This document shows, in pieces, positions 31,292-37,862 of a stretch of 64,000 bases of DNA. The translations under genes were made by a program, and so were the position numbers. Position 1 is the first letter of the stretch. Each line of letters starts with the position of its first letter. This DNA is from Dacryopinax spathularia (lineage: Eukaryota; Basidiomycota; Dacrymycetes; Dacrymycetales; Dacrymycetaceae): positions 62,001 to 126,000 of the forward strand of contig JBBPFI010000002.1 of assembly GCA_037974965.1 (NCBI GenBank), read 5' to 3'. Under the pieces are notes generated by a model. The model was given only the letters and a program-made list of their open reading frames with translations, was not told the origin of the DNA and did no database searches.

Positions 31292-32260
31292 GGTGAGGAC
31301 GACGACGACGACGAGAAGGAGAGACCGAGCAAGTTCTGTAGTATAGGGACTCCTTGCACGTTACTCCAACCATAACAAACGGGCTAGCCACACCATCGGA
31401 ATGGGCACGCAGAGGGGACAGGATACATTGCGTTCAATGCAAGCAACAAGTCGCGTCGTGAGGACAGGATAGCGCGTCGCTGATATACTGCATCTCCAGT
31501 ACAGTATCCATCAAAGCAAGTTGATCGGCGTTCACCGATCAGGCCGAACCCAGAAGCCAGCCAATGAAGCCTTGCAGCGAAGAGCGCCCAGATGATAGAG
31601 CACATCATATGTGACCTGCGTTTGCGCGTTGGGTCATTCCCTGGGCGGACTCGTACCCTGGATGATGCGTGGGAATGAAAGCCAGCCTCTGAGGAATGTT
31701 ATTGCGTTTAAGGTTGGCAGCAGGTTCCGTCGGGCCCGGTACGGCCAGTCAGCAGTTTGCTCATTAGGCAGGTTTACAGTCGTCCAGTGAGTATCAGTCT
31801 CTCGAAGCAAAGTTCATATCGCCTTGGCGGTTAGCATAGCTCCATAGCTTGCTTAGGACGGCTGACAGGAAGCGGACACGGGAAGTGAAGATGTCGACGT
31901 CAACACCTGGGCAACAATCAACCCCCGCGCTCATGCAGAAGTATCGGGGTCCTTAATAGCTGAAGAGCTCCGGCGGCTTCTTGTGGAGGACCCCGCTCCT
32001 TCCTTCAGTCTTGACTTTCCGCCACCTGTCCCCGGAGGCATGTTCACATTCCAGTCTTGCCGAACTCGGCATCTTGCACCGTAGTCTGCACCGTTAAGGA
32101 CTGCACATCCATTGTTGCAGGTCATATATCATAACATTGACCATTGTTATGATTATGTTTTCTTGCCCCGAATGGATACTGTTTCGCCTTGCCCTGCTTC
32201 GTGCTTGCCCAGGCTGCGCTCTCCGCTTCTTCTCGTTTGCTTCGACAGGCTGCGCCCGGC
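31292..32260. other. spacer left of the large mobile element
   Basis: No gene is seen. It holds a possible hairpin made of cggggtcct (31945-31953) and its complement (31987-31995), and a second inverted pair, atcataaca/tgttatgat, at about 32128-32153. The left end of the mobile element should lie here, but I could not find terminal inverted repeats by eye. Confidence 0.4.
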
Positions 32261-34579
32261 ATGATCTCTCACGGCGACTTTACACAAGATTTGCAAAGTG
32301 GTTCCTATACCCATATATGGGACAGCATGGAAGACTTTAACATATGGAAGGAAGAAGAAGAACGAACCAAGCTGATTCAATTTGGAAAGCGTAACGTCAA
32401 GTGTGGCCCAAAGGAGAGCAAAAGTGGGCAGTCTGGGTACCTGGAGAGACGCACTTGGGTCTGCACGCGAGAGGGGACTGGGGGGGTTAAGGCATATACA
32501 AAGAAGCATCCAGAGTGGAACCGAAAGGTTACAAGCAAGAGGGTGCGCAGCCTGGTTCTTCTTAATCCCACCCCGCTGATTCTGTTGTCTAGACAGGCTG
32601 CGAATGTGTCCTCATCACGAAAACGTATCCCGGCACGCCTAGAGTCCTTGGCCGCTACCATGCCGTCCATTCCCACTTAATCGGAGATCCCAATGCCCCC
32701 TACGTTAGGCTGTCCCAGCAGACCAGAACGTACATTGAAGAGTTGCTCCGTTTGAAGGTGGAGCCTCGGGAAATCTTGCGCAAGATCCATGGTGACGCCT
32801 ATGACCTTCATCAGACTGTTATGGTTGAGCGAAACCACTTTGTCACTATGCGCGATATTAAGAGAATGCAGGTGCGTGCACCGCACTGTACAGACTGCGC
32901 AGCCTGCTGATTTGCAGCCTTGGGATTCAGCTGGCCATCCGTGCTGAAGAAGTTCGACTTGGTCCAACGGATGATACCTCCACTCAAAAGTGGGTGGAAA
33001 TGCTTCGTCGCCGGAACTCTCTTTTGGGTGTCAAGCTTGTCAATGAGGCTGCGCCTCCCCAATCCTATCTGGAACAAGGCTCGATGTTTATTGCTATTCA
33101 AACCCCATGGCAGCGGCAAATCTTCTCTGAAATAGGCGGGAACGTTATGTGTATTGATGACACGCACAATGTGACCCAGTATTACAAGGTCACCCTCTTC
33201 ACATTATTGTGTCGAGATCATTGGGGCCATGGTACGTAGCACATGCAATTGGCTAGGCTGCGCATCCTCACCAATGTGCAGGTATCCCGGTCGCCTGGCT
33301 TTTGACCTCCAATGGAGAAGCACTCACCCTGCGATACTGGCTCCAGCTGTTCCGACAATCAAACAGTACCATCCCTCGCTATGTTATGACAGACAAGAAT
33401 CAAGCCCAAATCTCAGCAATTTGCGCAGCCTATCCATCTGCCACAGTGCTTCTTTGCTGGTGGCATGTGCTCCATGCATGGCAACAGCACCTTCGAATCG
33501 TCGATCATCCGGATCTCTGGCAGCTATTGAAGCAATGGATCCGTGTCCATGTTCCGGTGGAGTTTCAGGCGCACTGGCAAAAGATTGCTGCCTTGGCCCC
33601 ACCCAAATTTCGTGAATACCTCATTCACAGTTGGTCTGGGGATCAGGCAATGTGGTCCGCTATGAATCGCCAAAATCGCCATGTCTTTGAAGAAGTGCAC
33701 ACCAATATGCTCATCGAAGCGTACATCCACTCTGGTCCAGGCTGCGCTTGCCCTGCTGAGCCTGTCTGCATGCAGCTGGCACCATGTCCTGAAGACCACG
33801 TTTCTGCAGGGAGCAAGGAATCGACGGATGGATGACCTTCTCCACACCCTGACAACGGATGTGGCCGCACATTATGCTCTGCAGCACCGAAGACAAGAAG
33901 GGGGTTTTGAGGGGCTCAACATCGAAGCCCAAGCTCGCCTCAATGCTGAAACCGCCGGCGCCAAGATCCCACGGGAACATCTCACCTGCCAAAGTGCTGA
34001 TGCATATACCGTCCAATCGCAGACCGATTCCACCCATACATACATCGTTGACATGCTTCTTGGCACATGCGAGTGAAGTTCTGCAAACATATGGCCGCAG
34101 TGGACCATCACTTCCTGGAGCGCCGCCAGGCTGCGACTCTTTGGGCGCAGCCTCCCCCAACCTGTCGGGTCAAAGAGAAGCCAGTCGAGCTGGTGGCGGA
34201 ACAAAGCGAGGACCTTCAGGCACCCTCTGCTACGATGGTCCAAGTCCCCCTGGCCAATCGAGTCCTGGTCCGTGCACAGGAGCTGTGCAAACGGCTGCAA
34301 CAAGCAGGCTGCACTCCTGCTCAATTGGCCAGTGACCTCACCAAACTCCTTGGGTCGATGGATGCACTGCTGGCTCAAGCCATTGAGGCTGCGCCCATCC
34401 CTCCTTTGTTGCCGGAGAAGGTTAAGCTCCCACCTAATATATCAAGCGCTGCGGAAACAGCCAAAACCTTGCCTCATCGCAAGAAGAGGTTGCGGCAGGC
34501 TGCGCAGCCTTATGCAGGGCGCACGACACGTAGCAAGGTTGTAGTCGCGGCAGTCAAATATCCAATACCATTCCATTGA
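32261..34579 (+). CDS. MULE-type transposase with SWIM zinc finger (apparently frame-broken)
   Basis: Exons read as 32261-32542, 32593-32871, about 32918-33231, 33282-33720 and 33776 onward to a stop at 34579. The order matches a widespread basidiomycete transposase family. An N-terminal zinc domain (RRTWVCTREGTGG, then TGCECVLITKTYPGT and HSHLIGD) comes first. The catalytic core follows, with CIDDTHNV (first Asp), YVMTDKNQAQ (second Asp), LLCWWHVLHAWQQH, and HVFEEVHTNMLIEAWHHVLK (Glu). A SWIM-type finger comes last (RVKFCKHMAAVDHHF). Two junctions do not close: the 32872-32917 intron shifts the frame in my reading, and near 34060 the frame stops just before the SWIM finger and resumes one frame over. 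It is likely a decayed or mis-spliced copy. An ATG at 32327 is an alternative start. Confidence 0.78.
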
Positions 34580-34615
34580 CACTGTACAAGTACAAACGAG
34601 GCTCATGAGGCTGCG

Positions 34616-37323
34616 CTACACATTGCCAATCTTGAAGAATTCAGTCACAATCCACGAAGGCCGGCCACGCCAGTAGCCATCGGCACGGGTGGATCCCTGC
34701 ACCGTCATGGTGTACTTGTGACGCATGACACGCTCGAGGTTGTGTGTGTGGATGGGGCGGTAACCTTCATTGTTCTCGAAGAGGTCGAGCATTGTTGTGG
34801 CAGAGAGGCCCAAAATCGACTCAGCTGCAGTATTGAAACTCGTGGCACGTTCACGCTCGCCCTCTTCATCGACCAACCAGAAATGAAGGCAGTACCTAGG
34901 TTGCGCAGCCTCAGTCACACACAGGTTGCGCAGCCTGAAAAGACACTTACTTGGGAACTGGCACCATGAAGCTTTGTCGGCAGACCGGGCAGTGGTACAA
35001 GTTATCCACACCTCGATCAGCCAAAGTCATCTTGCGGTTGCATGTGCGAGTTGCGCAGCCTTGATAAGCGACACTCTTCTCGACATTGATCTCGATGGTC
35101 CCAGATATACGGAAAGTGCGTGGAACAGGCTGCGCGTCCAGCTTTTCCTCACGCACTTGAGTGATCGTCCGAATGGGCGGCAGTGTGGTGAGCTGGCGCT
35201 GGGCAATGGCCTTTGCGCCATCCGCGCTGCAGGCTGCGCTGAGCAAGTGCCACTGTGCCGGATCATCCTTTGCAGCCTCCCACCTGCAATGAAGGTCAGC
35301 GCAGCCTAGAAGAAACAACAATGGGAGCCCACGCACCACTGAGACAACACGTCATACCCGGGGATGTCCTCCCCCCAAAAAATCTCAGTATGTCGGGCGT
35401 CAGTCTTGACTGAGAGACCACGAGAGGTGTCCACCAGCACGTTGTGGAAAAGGGCAATAGTGCCATCTGTGCCCTCAAGTTCGGGCCAGAACTCATCAAA
35501 GGCGACGAGTCGCACTACACTGCCCGTCTCGTCAACGAGCCACATATCCACTCGAGTACTCGGTGCACCATGCGCAAAGTTCTACAAGACACTGTGAGGC
35601 TGCGCAGCCTTTGCCTTATATGAACTTCACTTACAAAGCGGCCCGTGCTCTTCCCCTTCCCAAACATGACCTCACTGGTATTGGCGATCACACAAGCAAT
35701 ATCTGAAGCAACTGTTAACTTGGGCAGGTTGCGCAGCCTCAAATGGGCACATACCGACAGGCTTGCGGTCCGGCACACTGGGCAGCTGCACAATCTTGCG
35801 CAAGTTGAAGTGTCGCATTGGGATGGATCGATCCCCAGGAACCTAACCAGTTGTGTCATGAGCAAACGTTCACTGGGTGTGCAGGCTGCGCTTACATTGA
35901 CGAACTCGGCAGTGGCTTCCACAAAGTCCAGCTGTGCCGGATGGAAGGACCGGCAGTAGATCTGCACAGCGCCAATGGCATTCACATTGTGGATCTCATA
36001 TACCTATTCCAAAATCAGGATGCGCAGCCTCCATGACATTGAGTCAGACTCACCTCGCCTTCTTCGAGTTGCGCAGCCTTGCCCATGAGCTTCTTGCGAA
36101 CTACAAGATCGATTTGGGCGGTGTTGTCATGCAACACAACATCAACAGTCCAGCGTTTGCGTTCGATGCGAGTGACACGGCCCCGGACGTGCAGGCTGCG
36201 CAGCCTTTTGAGCTTACAACCTAAGCAAATGGAAGTGAATGCACATACCCACGAGAATTGGCGACAATATCACGGATCGGAGTGAAGGAGGGGATTCGGC
36301 CCCAGCCTGGAGGGTGGAAAGGCAAGGCTGGAGGCTGCGCTTCCACACCAGGGACTCGGTCTGGATGGGTGGCATAATGCCGGACTGCCCATGATTGGAG
36401 GGGTGCATCGGCCGGGAACTCCAGATCGACCTCCGGTTCAACTGGGGGAGGTGGACGGGCAGTGAGCGGGGGGGAGCGCGCAATCAGTGCAGGAGGCACG
36501 GCTCCCAAACCGGGCAGGACGACGGTGGTGGGTTGTCCCTGTCCACCCGTCCCAAGACGTTGCGCAGGCTTGGGTGATTGGGACTCAACCTTGACAGAGA
36601 AGACACCCTGGGGAGCCCAATCAGATGGGCGACTAGTGGCCGCAGGGGAGGGAGAGGGAGACTGCGCAGCCTTTGGCTTGATAGGGGACGGATAGGGAGC
36701 CTGCGCAGCCTTGGGCTGGATGATGACGGTTTGGTGGATGACCTTGGGGGGGGTTGTCGGTGAGGAAGGCTGCGCAGCCTCATTGTTGTCAAGGGAGTGG
36801 AGATAGCCTTCGAATGGAGAGTTGACGTTCGACCAGTTGGCATAAAGGAGGGGATGGCCGATCTTGGCTGTGCGACCTTGGATGCGCTCCAGGTCCCACG
36901 CAATGAGGGATATACTATGGGCCAGTCAGTGATGTTCAGGCTGCGCTACACTTGCAGACGCACCCAGCACCATATCCCGACACCCAGCGCTCCATGTCCC
37001 TCAGCTGCACAATGTCGTACACCTCGAACTCATCCTGGCGCAACCTCTGTGCCAAAGCAGGGCCAGGCACAACTTGGTTCACGTAGGTAACACTATCACT
37101 GAGAGTCAGGCTGCGCAGCCTGTCAGAGAATGCGCATGCTTGAGGGGCAGACAACTTACTGGAAATAAGGAGGGTCGAACGGCTCGCCATCAGGGTCAAG
37201 TTCCTCATAAAAGTCGATGAGCTGAACACGCCCATTGCCATTGCCAGACACATGAGCGCGTATGAGGCCGTCCAGAACACCAATGTCTAAGTTAAGCGGC
37301 GGATTGACTAAGGGGTTAGCCAT
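34616..37323 (-). CDS. RPA1-like single-strand DNA-binding protein carried by the mobile element
   Basis: Ten exons (37323-37160, 37098-36964, 36914-36249, 36195-36054, 36003-35896, 35842-35755, 35702-35635, 35581-35337, 35283-34951, 34895-34616) join in frame to 742 residues. The layout is that of replication protein A large subunit. It has an N-terminal OB fold (to about residue 110, with EVYDIVQLRDMERW and ISLIAWDLERIQG) and a long Pro/Ala-rich linker. Next are tandem OB folds (GRVTRIERKRWTVDVVLHDN; VDMWLVDETGSVVRLVAFDEF). The C-terminal OB fold holds a zinc site (GC-x4-C, later CPVC) and LHFWLVDEEGERERATSFN. It is longer than cellular RPA1 (about 600-620) because of the linker. No frame break is visible, so it may still be made. 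An element-encoded RPA1 could bind single strands during transposition. Confidence 0.8.
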
Positions 37324-37862
37324 GGATGGCGGCTGATAGAGTGGGGATGACGATGAGACAAGGGGAGAGATCGGCGATCAATGACAGCAAGGCTAAAGGT
37401 GGTGGCGCAGCCTCGGACACTATTCGGAGGCAGAGGGCATGCCTGACGGAGGCATCTCAGGCATGGGTGGCGGAAAGTACGCAAGTTCCTTCCTTCCTGC
37501 ATAGCCACCTCTGGCAGCCACAACTCATGAGATCTATTCTTGGCGTCCTTTCTTAGTGTCCACCACTCTCATTTGGGTGCCGAGACAGGAATAGAAACCT
37601 CTTTTTGGGAAATATTATGGGCACAATAGTTGGCAGAGAACCCAGACAGGATCTGCACGAAGGAAGCCGTTTACGTAGGACTGGCTGACCCGCTCGTACC
37701 GTCTCTAATAATAGTCCACTCTAATAGCTAACTAAACGATACTGGTACATCATCTCTAGATATAAACATAGACATACATTACACACATACATACACAGAA
37801 GGCATCAACTTCACCGAACCCTGAGCTCCTCAGGGTCGCTCTGAGCAGGACAAAGGCCGGCG
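37324..37862. other. spacer right of the large mobile element
   Basis: Upstream of the RPA1-like gene and downstream of the second family A SGNH gene. The last motif half-site is at 37404-37413; beyond it the sequence shows no motif copies. A short TA/CA-rich stretch lies at 37750-37800. No gene seen. Confidence 0.4.

What the first reader, a model, noticed from the sequence alone, without database searches (positions are those of the whole stretch)
32211..37413. A 14-bp palindrome is spread through an entire mobile element, genes included
About 34 copies of AGGCTGCGCAGCCT or its half-sites occur every 150 bp or so over 5.2 kb, in introns, exons and spacers, and none was noticed outside. Transposase-binding repeats in other elements are normally limited to the ends. 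An element that keeps a binding site along its whole length would be a new layout; other possibilities are a silencing or methylation target, or a signal for copying in segments.
Basis: seen in the sequence. Interest (0 to 1): 0.85.

Follow-up and report, generated by a model that had tools for sequence, protein, structure and literature searches.

The report
Address code spread through fungal transposons
In one fungal genome, a cut-and-paste transposon and a group of unrelated rolling-circle transposons each carry dozens of copies of a short palindrome, genes included, in family-specific versions that selection preserves, so they look like a self-recognition code read by a protein that the elements probably encode.

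Summary
The window element is a 5,480-bp Mutator-like transposon (MULE) with a MULE transposase, an RPA1-like gene and a 10-bp target duplication. It carries 32 copies of AGGCTGCGCAGCCT or its halves: 14 in exons, 15 in introns, 3 outside genes. Of 17 exact sites in the 29-Mb genome, 16 lie in three copies of the element. Between two copies that differ at 15% of other positions, motif bases differ at 0.3-1.5%, in introns as in exons; 30 of 31 sites are shared.

The same layout occurs in Helitrons of this genome, with other palindromes on the same GCGC core: AGCNTGCGCANGCT, TCYTGCGCARGA, GACNNNGCGCNNNGTC. Seven of 22 Helitron Rep regions read show such a code (one, L042, weakly) and form one clade. 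Cut-and-paste and rolling-circle elements share the layout but not the enzyme. Both have an RPA1-like gene, and the MULE's is nearest to that of the Helitrons whose code is nearest. Two short gene-less relatives with the MULE's right end lack the motif, so transposase binding is unlikely.

Best reading: a family-specific address tag, read by an element-encoded protein (perhaps RPA1-like), functionally closest to VANC anti-silencing. Reader and purpose are inferred.

The parts
32007..37486 (.). Mutator-like element, 5,480 bp, AGTCTTGACTTTCCGCCACC...GGTGGCGGAAAGTACGCAAGT
   Evidence: ends and flanks of three full copies compared
31997..32006 (+). left target-site duplication TCCTTCCTTC
37487..37496 (+). 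right target-site duplication TCCTTCCTTC
   Evidence: copy on C1 has CCCACGTTCC on both sides, copy C2b TCTCCGATTC left and TCTCCGATTG right
32261..34579 (+). MULE transposase gene, several short introns; model approximate
   Evidence: Pfam MULE E 4.8e-9; exon model from W versus C2b codon conservation; the end of the gene (about 34010-34579) is uncertain
34616..37323 (-). RPA1-like gene, 10 exons, 755 aa model; model approximate
   Evidence: Pfam Rep_fac-A_C E 8.9e-15; PDB 4gnx chain C, E 4e-12
32211..32224 (+). site AGGCTGCGCTCTCC (left half)
32247..32260 (+). site AGGCTGCGCCCGGC (left half)
32540..32553 (+). site AGGGTGCGCAGCCT
32892..32905 (+). site AGACTGCGCAGCCT
33046..33059 (+). site AGGCTGCGCCTCCC (left half)
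33255..33268 (+). site AGGCTGCGCATCCT
33418..33431 (+). site AATTTGCGCAGCCT (right half)
33739..33752 (+). site AGGCTGCGCTTGCC (left half)
34140..34153 (+). site TTTGGGCGCAGCCT (right half)
34386..34399 (+). site AGGCTGCGCCCATC (left half)
34497..34510 (+). exact site AGGCTGCGCAGCCT
34608..34621 (+). site AGGCTGCGCTACAC (left half)
34898..34911 (+). site AGGTTGCGCAGCCT
34923..34936 (+). site AGGTTGCGCAGCCT
35048..35061 (+). site GAGTTGCGCAGCCT (right half)
35127..35140 (+). site AGGCTGCGCGTCCA (left half)
35231..35244 (+). site AGGCTGCGCTGAGC (left half)
35294..35307 (+). site GGTCAGCGCAGCCT (right half)
35597..35610 (+). exact site AGGCTGCGCAGCCT
35726..35739 (+). site AGGTTGCGCAGCCT
35883..35896 (+). 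site AGGCTGCGCTTACA (left half)
36017..36030 (+). site AGGATGCGCAGCCT
36066..36079 (+). site GAGTTGCGCAGCCT (right half)
36193..36206 (+). exact site AGGCTGCGCAGCCT
36332..36345 (+). site AGGCTGCGCTTCCA (left half)
36557..36570 (+). site ACGTTGCGCAGGCT (no perfect half)
36659..36672 (+). site AGACTGCGCAGCCT
36698..36711 (+). site AGCCTGCGCAGCCT
36767..36780 (+). exact site AGGCTGCGCAGCCT
36938..36951 (+). site AGGCTGCGCTACAC (left half)
37108..37121 (+). exact site AGGCTGCGCAGCCT
37400..37413 (+). site TGGTGGCGCAGCCT (right half)

Best explanation
The palindrome is a family-specific address tag: a recognition sequence for a DNA-binding protein, kept by selection about once per 150-170 bp along the whole element, in coding and non-coding DNA alike. 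SHOWN: the motif is specific to the elements, conserved far above its surroundings, and exists in at least four versions with one GCGC core, each tied to an element lineage. INFERRED, weak: the purpose. The spread over the whole body, with a common spacing of 100-175 bp, fits a protein that coats the element's own chromatin and lifts silencing, as VANC proteins do for VANDAL elements in Arabidopsis; protection or loading on replicating or single-stranded element DNA is the main alternative purpose.
For: Specificity: 16 of 17 exact genome sites are in the element. Conservation, window copy versus C2b: motif bases exon 0/139, intron 0/144, outside CDS 1/32, against 14.3%, 18.9% and 21.9% for other bases; whole 14-mers of the 14 best sites 3/196 against 788/5259; sites defined in the other copy 3/315 against 788/5140, p 5e-18, and 30 of 31 sites shared where 15-26% is a rough neutral expectation for a 9-bp half. 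HelA versus HelB, RPA introns: motif 25/213 (11.7%) against 397/918 (43.2%). Versions, at most 2 mismatches: MULE 14 sites against 0.0 in dinucleotide shuffles; HelA and HelB 63 each against 0.4 and 0.5; HelD RPA region 17 against 0.3; Rep coding with synonymous-codon shuffles: HelA and HelB 8 each against 0.6 and 0.4, L045 and L046 7 each against 0.9 and 0.2, L043 10 against 1.7, L044 11 against 1.5, L042 7 against 0.8 (largest of 200 shuffles 5). Whole-element clusters: 16 exact TCYTGCGCARGA on C2:2198327-2208547 and 18 on C4:640450-651150; 15 GACNNNGCGCNNNGTC on C1:1688403-1698067 and 7 on C1:2128340-2135111. The seven form one Rep clade (support 100/99), one change of state. Sites arise mostly without indels. 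RPA link: summed tblastn bits of MULE RPA to HelB 229 and HelA 221, HelD 107, C7 75, host 49; reciprocal HelA to MULE 227, HelD 101, C7 102, host 53. Even spacing in MULE and HelA.
Against: No binding, methylation or expression data. An RPA1-like gene is also present in Helitrons without a dense code (C7, L037), so it is not sufficient. HelA and HelB share a code although their RPA exons differ at 35% of non-motif bases, so the protein has not changed in step with the code over that distance. RPA is known as a largely sequence-indifferent ssDNA binder (recalled). The RPA domain tree is unresolved. The codes overlap: at 2 mismatches the HelA pattern finds 18 places in the MULE and the MULE and HelD patterns find 26 and 21 in HelA. 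C7 itself has 7 GACNNN-type places against 2.2 in shuffles (largest of 30: 5), so 'motif-less' may be too simple. L042 has no exact GACNNNGCGCNNNGTC near its Rep and its own GCGC flanks lean to TTC, so it may have another code. The interrupted C1 copy shows no special conservation against the window copy (4/196 against 131/5282); that fits lost constraint but rests on few changes. Only one genome was available.
Confidence: 0.5

Rival explanations
1. The reader is a host protein, for instance a GCGC-binding factor or a silencing or methylation machinery that the elements exploit or suffer from.
For: The versions share a GCGC core within one genome; the core holds a CpG, and CpG transitions are in excess on the C1 branch (22 of 583 CpG C/G positions against 10 of 2386 others) and on the window branch (9 against 11).
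Against: Flanks differ by family inside one nucleus. A harmful silencing target should be lost, not kept; motif bases change far less than the rest of the element. 15 of the 22 Helitron Rep regions read show no code above shuffles.
Confidence: 0.2
2. The motif is an RNA-level signal (splicing, export or translation of the element's transcripts); palindromy lets it work in transcripts of either strand.
For: 16 of 18 modelled introns of the HelA RPA gene hold a site (within 6 bp); intron density in the MULE is 21.6 per kb against 3.2 in exons; the CAG in the core can serve as an acceptor by the model. In HelA, single halves lean one way by gene strand: plus genes 14 right and 10 left, minus gene 5 right and 16 left.
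Against: The open Rep coding stretch of HelA is dense too (17 places of a loose half pattern in 1.9 kb). In the MULE the lean is weak and opposite: plus gene 4 right and 6 left, minus gene 10 right and 6 left. N and N' of HelA full sites are complementary in 9 of 24, about what independence gives by my reckoning, so no hairpin.
Confidence: 0.12
3. Binding sites for the transposition enzyme along the whole body.
For: Element-specific and conserved; present from 204 bp inside the left end to 73 bp inside the right end.
Against: The layout is shared by a MULE and by HUH Helitrons; gene-less elements with the same right end have 0 perfect halves and one near-half each (2 of 3 such elements read, one only in its right 601 bp). 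Those could have been moved by another element.
Confidence: 0.06
4. A mutational by-product: repeated insertion or gene conversion of a small palindrome without selection.
For: Many near-identical copies in one element.
Against: Sites are older than the divergence of the copies and conserved while neighbours change; in Rep coding most arise at ungapped positions, one at the conserved residues LRRLH.
Confidence: 0.03

Closest known systems
VANC proteins and their motifs in Arabidopsis VANDAL elements (PMC5735166: abstract and sections 8 and 11 read; PMC10398659: abstract read)
   Same: A MULE-type transposon; a short motif highly enriched in its own family and at high density only there; related families with different motifs; binding by an element-encoded protein proposed here, shown there.
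   Different: VANC21's motif YAGTATTAY lies mainly in non-coding regions, is not palindromic, is arrayed in one orientation, and targets spread as tandem repeats. Here the site is palindromic, evenly dispersed, also in exons, and the layout is shared with Helitrons; the candidate reader is RPA1-like.
TET/JBP-bearing fungal DNA transposons (PMC12730594, passages read)
   Same: Fungal elements of several classes, Helitrons included, that share a cargo gene thought to defeat silencing and pass it between classes.
   Different: That cargo is an enzyme; no dispersed motif is mentioned in the passages that I saw, and MULEs are not among the lineages listed in its abstract.
Helitrons with RPA-like genes (known in plants; reported as not found in Fusarium and Pleurotus Helitrons: PMC5148889 and PMC4289320, passages read)
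   Same: Rep-Pif1 enzyme plus RPA-like gene.
   Different: No dispersed palindromic code in the passages seen; here it marks one clade only.
Subterminal TnpA-type sites of CACTA/Spm elements (recalled; one search gave a listing only)
   Same: Repeated short sites bound by an element protein.
   Different: Confined to the ends; here over the whole body.

Membership tests
Mutator-like element (window element) | MULE-family transposase | tested here: met
   Pfam PF10551 E 4.8e-9, 37 bits against cutoff 27.6
Mutator-like element (window element) | 9-11 bp target-site duplication | tested here: met
   10 bp in the window copy and the C1 copy, 9 of 10 in C2b
Mutator-like element (window element) | terminal inverted repeats | tested here: met
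   CTTTCCGCCACC at both ends, short and imperfect further out
Mutator-like element (window element) | intact DDE catalytic residues | not tested
   no catalytic alignment made
Helitron (HelA) | Rep HUH domain and Pif1 helicase | tested here: met
   Helitron_like_N E 3.9e-30, PIF1 E 3.3e-17; relatives by protein similarity to its Rep only
Helitron (HelA) | Helitron ends and insertion without duplication | not tested
   ends were bounded only by homology of HelA to HelB
RPA1 (large subunit of replication protein A) | C-terminal zinc-ribbon OB domain and homology to solved RPA70 | tested here: met
   MULE model: Rep_fac-A_C E 8.9e-15; 4gnx_C E 4e-12 over residues 471-710. HelA exon: Rep_fac-A_C E 0.00035, under the curated cutoff
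RPA1 (large subunit of replication protein A) | ssDNA binding | not testable with these tools
   needs protein
VANC/VANDAL anti-silencing system | dense family-specific motif in the element | tested here: met
VANC/VANDAL anti-silencing system | motif mainly in non-coding DNA, often as tandem repeats | tested here: not met
   14 of 32 sites exonic; dispersed, even spacing
VANC/VANDAL anti-silencing system | VANC gene | tested here: inconclusive
   I modelled two genes, MULE transposase and RPA1-like; no VANC sequence was searched for
VANC/VANDAL anti-silencing system | loss of silent marks on motif-bearing copies | not testable with these tools
   needs methylation data
Transposase-binding terminal or subterminal repeats | present on mobilised non-autonomous copies | tested here: not met
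   0 perfect halves in the C14 element (633 bp, perfect duplication CCATACCAGC) and in the right 601 bp of the C9:245906 element; third element not read

The most novel reading that the evidence does not exclude
A previously undescribed class of transposon self-recognition: an RPA1-derived, element-encoded protein family has become a sequence-specific reader, and two unrelated transposon classes have written its target palindrome through their whole length, codons included.
Probability: 0.35. Interest if true: 0.93.

Novelty: new variant of a known kind. Interest (0 to 1): 0.82.

Why it matters
Sequence-specific self-recognition through a dispersed motif is known to me only from VANC/VANDAL in Arabidopsis. 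The test is direct: express each RPA1-like protein and ask whether it binds its own palindrome.

Tried and rejected
Hairpin or cruciform role: the variable positions in HelA full sites are complementary in 9 of 24, about 10 expected from the column make-up by hand reckoning, and GACNNNGCGCNNNGTC has free inner positions; rejected as the main reading.

A second palindrome with a TCGA core in HelA (z 16): its flanks show no clear consensus; dropped.

Other cores in the C7 Helitron (9 kb, L037): among the four-base palindromes frequent enough to score, the best z is 2.7. Against a clean 'none': C7 has 7 GACNNN-type places at 2 mismatches against 2.2 in shuffles, largest of 30 being 5. For L038-L041 and the eleven more distant Helitrons only 1.7-1.9 kb each was read; GCGC itself is somewhat raised in L038 (21 against 13.4, largest of 200 shuffles 22). 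A weak or different code in some of them is not excluded.

L042: counted as GACNNN type on 7 two-mismatch places, but it has no exact site near C7:1686498 in the genome-wide list and its flanks lean to GCGCNNNTTC. Its GCGC flanks are not random (z 10.3). If it were left out, the single change on the tree would not hold as it stands.

RPA tree on the zinc-ribbon exon: unresolved, long branches meet; replaced by summed tblastn bits, which are a similarity ranking, not a phylogeny. Pieces up to E 10 were summed. The host RPA1 and several relatives were only partly fetched, so their sums are low partly for that reason; HelA, HelB, HelD (3.6 kb) and C7 (9 kb) are the fairer comparison.

A small plus-strand reading frame of HelA (C1:461022-461513) has no Pfam match better than E 0.048 and was not compared with the MULE.

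Triple TGCGCA search: 9 hits genome-wide against 6 for the reversed control, so weak as a count; 7 of 9 fall in motif-bearing elements, including a further Helitron on C12; two (C9:596169, C16:716383) were not followed.

TCYTGCGCARGA: 62 against 16 (50 of 62 sites listed). AGCNTGCGCANGCT: 54 against 4 (50 of 54 listed). At two mismatches the HelD pattern also has 5 places in 26 kb of host sequence against 1.5 in shuffles, largest of 30 being 3.

Organism: not named by any tool; a fungus judged from its introns and from host RPA1 being nearest to PDB 4gnx; that 4gnx is Ustilago maydis RPA is recalled.

Literature: ten searches of open PMC papers; in the listings, abstracts and passages that I saw there was no report of a whole-body palindromic code. 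Five papers were opened. Subscription papers and preprints were not covered.
Full report
WHAT WAS CHECKED. The 9-bp halves of the palindrome occur 17 and 19 times inside 32200-37420 and 0 times in the rest of the window. The exact 14-mer has 17 sites in the 29.2-Mb genome, 16 of them in three copies of one element. With one mismatch there are 75 sites against 6 for the reversed pattern (50 listed).

THE ELEMENT. The three full copies are the window copy, C1:2267536-2280313 (97-98% identical in its two parts, interrupted by an insert of about 7 kb) and C2:1456046-1461536, here C2b (85%). Ends and flanks show a 5,480-bp element at 32007-37486 with short inverted repeats and 10-bp target-site duplications. 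It codes for a MULE transposase and, on the other strand, a 755-residue RPA1-like protein by a conservation-based exon model. The exon models are approximate, above all the end of the transposase gene and some acceptors that fall within motifs; for the site classes I adjusted a few exon bounds by hand.

SELECTION ON THE MOTIF. Between the window copy and C2b, motif bases differ at 0 of 139 exon, 0 of 144 intron and 1 of 32 outside positions; other bases differ at 14.3%, 18.9% and 21.9%. There the bases counted are those that match the motif in the window copy, so losses on the window branch are missed; defining sites in C2b instead gives 3 of 315 against 788 of 5140. 30 of 31 window sites are present in C2b, which has 32. 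The window copy against the interrupted C1 copy shows no such contrast (4 of 196 against 131 of 5282); at 33255, 34898, 35883 and 37108 the C1 copy has lost the CpG of the core that both other copies keep. So the motif has been under purifying selection in introns as much as in exons. Sites are spaced more evenly than uniform placement in the MULE (p 0.003) and HelA (p 0.0003); 13 of 30 and 30 of 68 gaps lie between 100 and 175 bp.

THE SAME LAYOUT IN HELITRONS. The one-mismatch search pointed to C1:454700-465700, a Helitron (HelA) with Rep, Pif1 and RPA1-like genes, carrying 69 half or full sites of AGCNTGCGCANGCT; a relative on C8, HelB, has as many (63 each at two mismatches or fewer, shuffles 0.4-0.5). 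HelA's Rep protein finds 31 strong loci in this genome (E 4e-91 or better). I read the Rep region of 22 of them: HelA, HelB and 20 others. Seven show a GCGC-centred code: HelA and HelB; L045 and L046 (TCYTGCGCARGA); L043 and L044 (GACNNNGCGCNNNGTC); and L042, weakest and perhaps with a code of its own. Fifteen show none above shuffles in the 1.7-1.9 kb read. Whole-element clusters were confirmed by genome-wide pattern positions for L046 and L045 (16 and 18 exact sites) and for L043 and L044 (15 and 7), and for L046's element (HelD) by 17 sites in 2.8 kb around its RPA gene. A further Helitron, on C12, appears to carry the HelD code; it is not counted above. On the Rep tree the seven form one clade (100/99), one change. 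The codes are related, not disjoint: at two mismatches each of the MULE and HelA patterns also finds places in the other element.

HOW SITES ARISE. In HelA's Rep, 9 strict sites were compared with seven relatives: 6 are fully ungapped, 1 has a gap in one row (L044), 2 lie in a variable, gapped tail. One falls on the conserved LRRLH, where codon choice makes the motif; others come with changed residues. So they come mostly by substitution. With a looser site definition, positions overlap between HelA and the other codes more than by shifted placement in 4 of 4 comparisons (p 0.0025-0.0105), but not significantly in 3 comparisons among the other codes (p 0.05-0.29); shared protein constraint may explain part of it.

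WHO READS IT. The MULE and the Helitrons use unrelated enzymes. The gene type found in both is RPA1-like. The MULE protein is nearest to those of HelA and HelB, about twice the summed bits of HelD and two to three times those of the C7 Helitron, in both directions of search, and its half-site GCGCAGCCT is nearest to their GCGCANGCT. Against: C7 has the gene without a dense code; HelA and HelB keep one code over 35% exon divergence of that gene; RPA is not known for sequence preference (recalled).

WHY NOT TRANSPOSASE SITES. The MULE's right end occurs without the genes on C14 and twice on C9 (6 places in all, the three full copies included; reversed control 2). The C14 element (633 bp, duplication CCATACCAGC) and 601 bp of one C9 element contain no perfect half and one near-half each, where the MULE has about 5.5 near-halves per 600 bp. 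The third was not read.

PURPOSE. VANC proteins (PMC5735166) bind a short family-specific motif of a MULE and strip silent marks; this is the closest working model. CpG transitions are in excess in these copies, more on the C1 branch (22) than on the window branch (9) of 583 CpG positions (p 0.03), which hints at methylation of the interrupted copy; it is one comparison and not proof. Replication or ssDNA protection, natural for RPA, is the alternative.

NOVELTY. In ten searches of the open library I saw no description of a code of this layout (calls listed under Tried and rejected). I file it as a new variant of transposon self-recognition, and keep open that it is a class of its own.

Noticed in passing
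G000 whole genome: 31 strong Helitron Rep loci in a 29-Mb fungal genome, most with open frames of about 1,900-2,200 residues, many of them diverged from one another; an unusually rich set of apparently intact Helitron families.
   Followed up: partly
C1:454546-465786 and C8:1152390-1163628: HelA and HelB differ at about 6% in the Rep-helicase coding region but 35-43% in the RPA1-like gene (non-motif bases), which suggests exchange of the RPA module.
   Followed up: partly
C14:587969-588601, C9:245906, C9:683743: Elements without the MULE's genes that share its right end; the two read are A+T-richer than the MULE (GC 0.46-0.47).
   Followed up: partly
C1:2268440-2275700 (inside the C1 MULE copy): An insert of about 7 kb interrupts this copy; its nature was not examined.
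   Followed up: no
L020 8524-9302 and 7772-8311, minus strand: HelA's RPA1-like gene seems, by eye, to hold two successive RPA70N-like stretches.
   Followed up: no
window 36193-36206 and HelA RPA introns: The CAG of the motif appears to serve as a 3' splice acceptor in some modelled introns.
   Followed up: no
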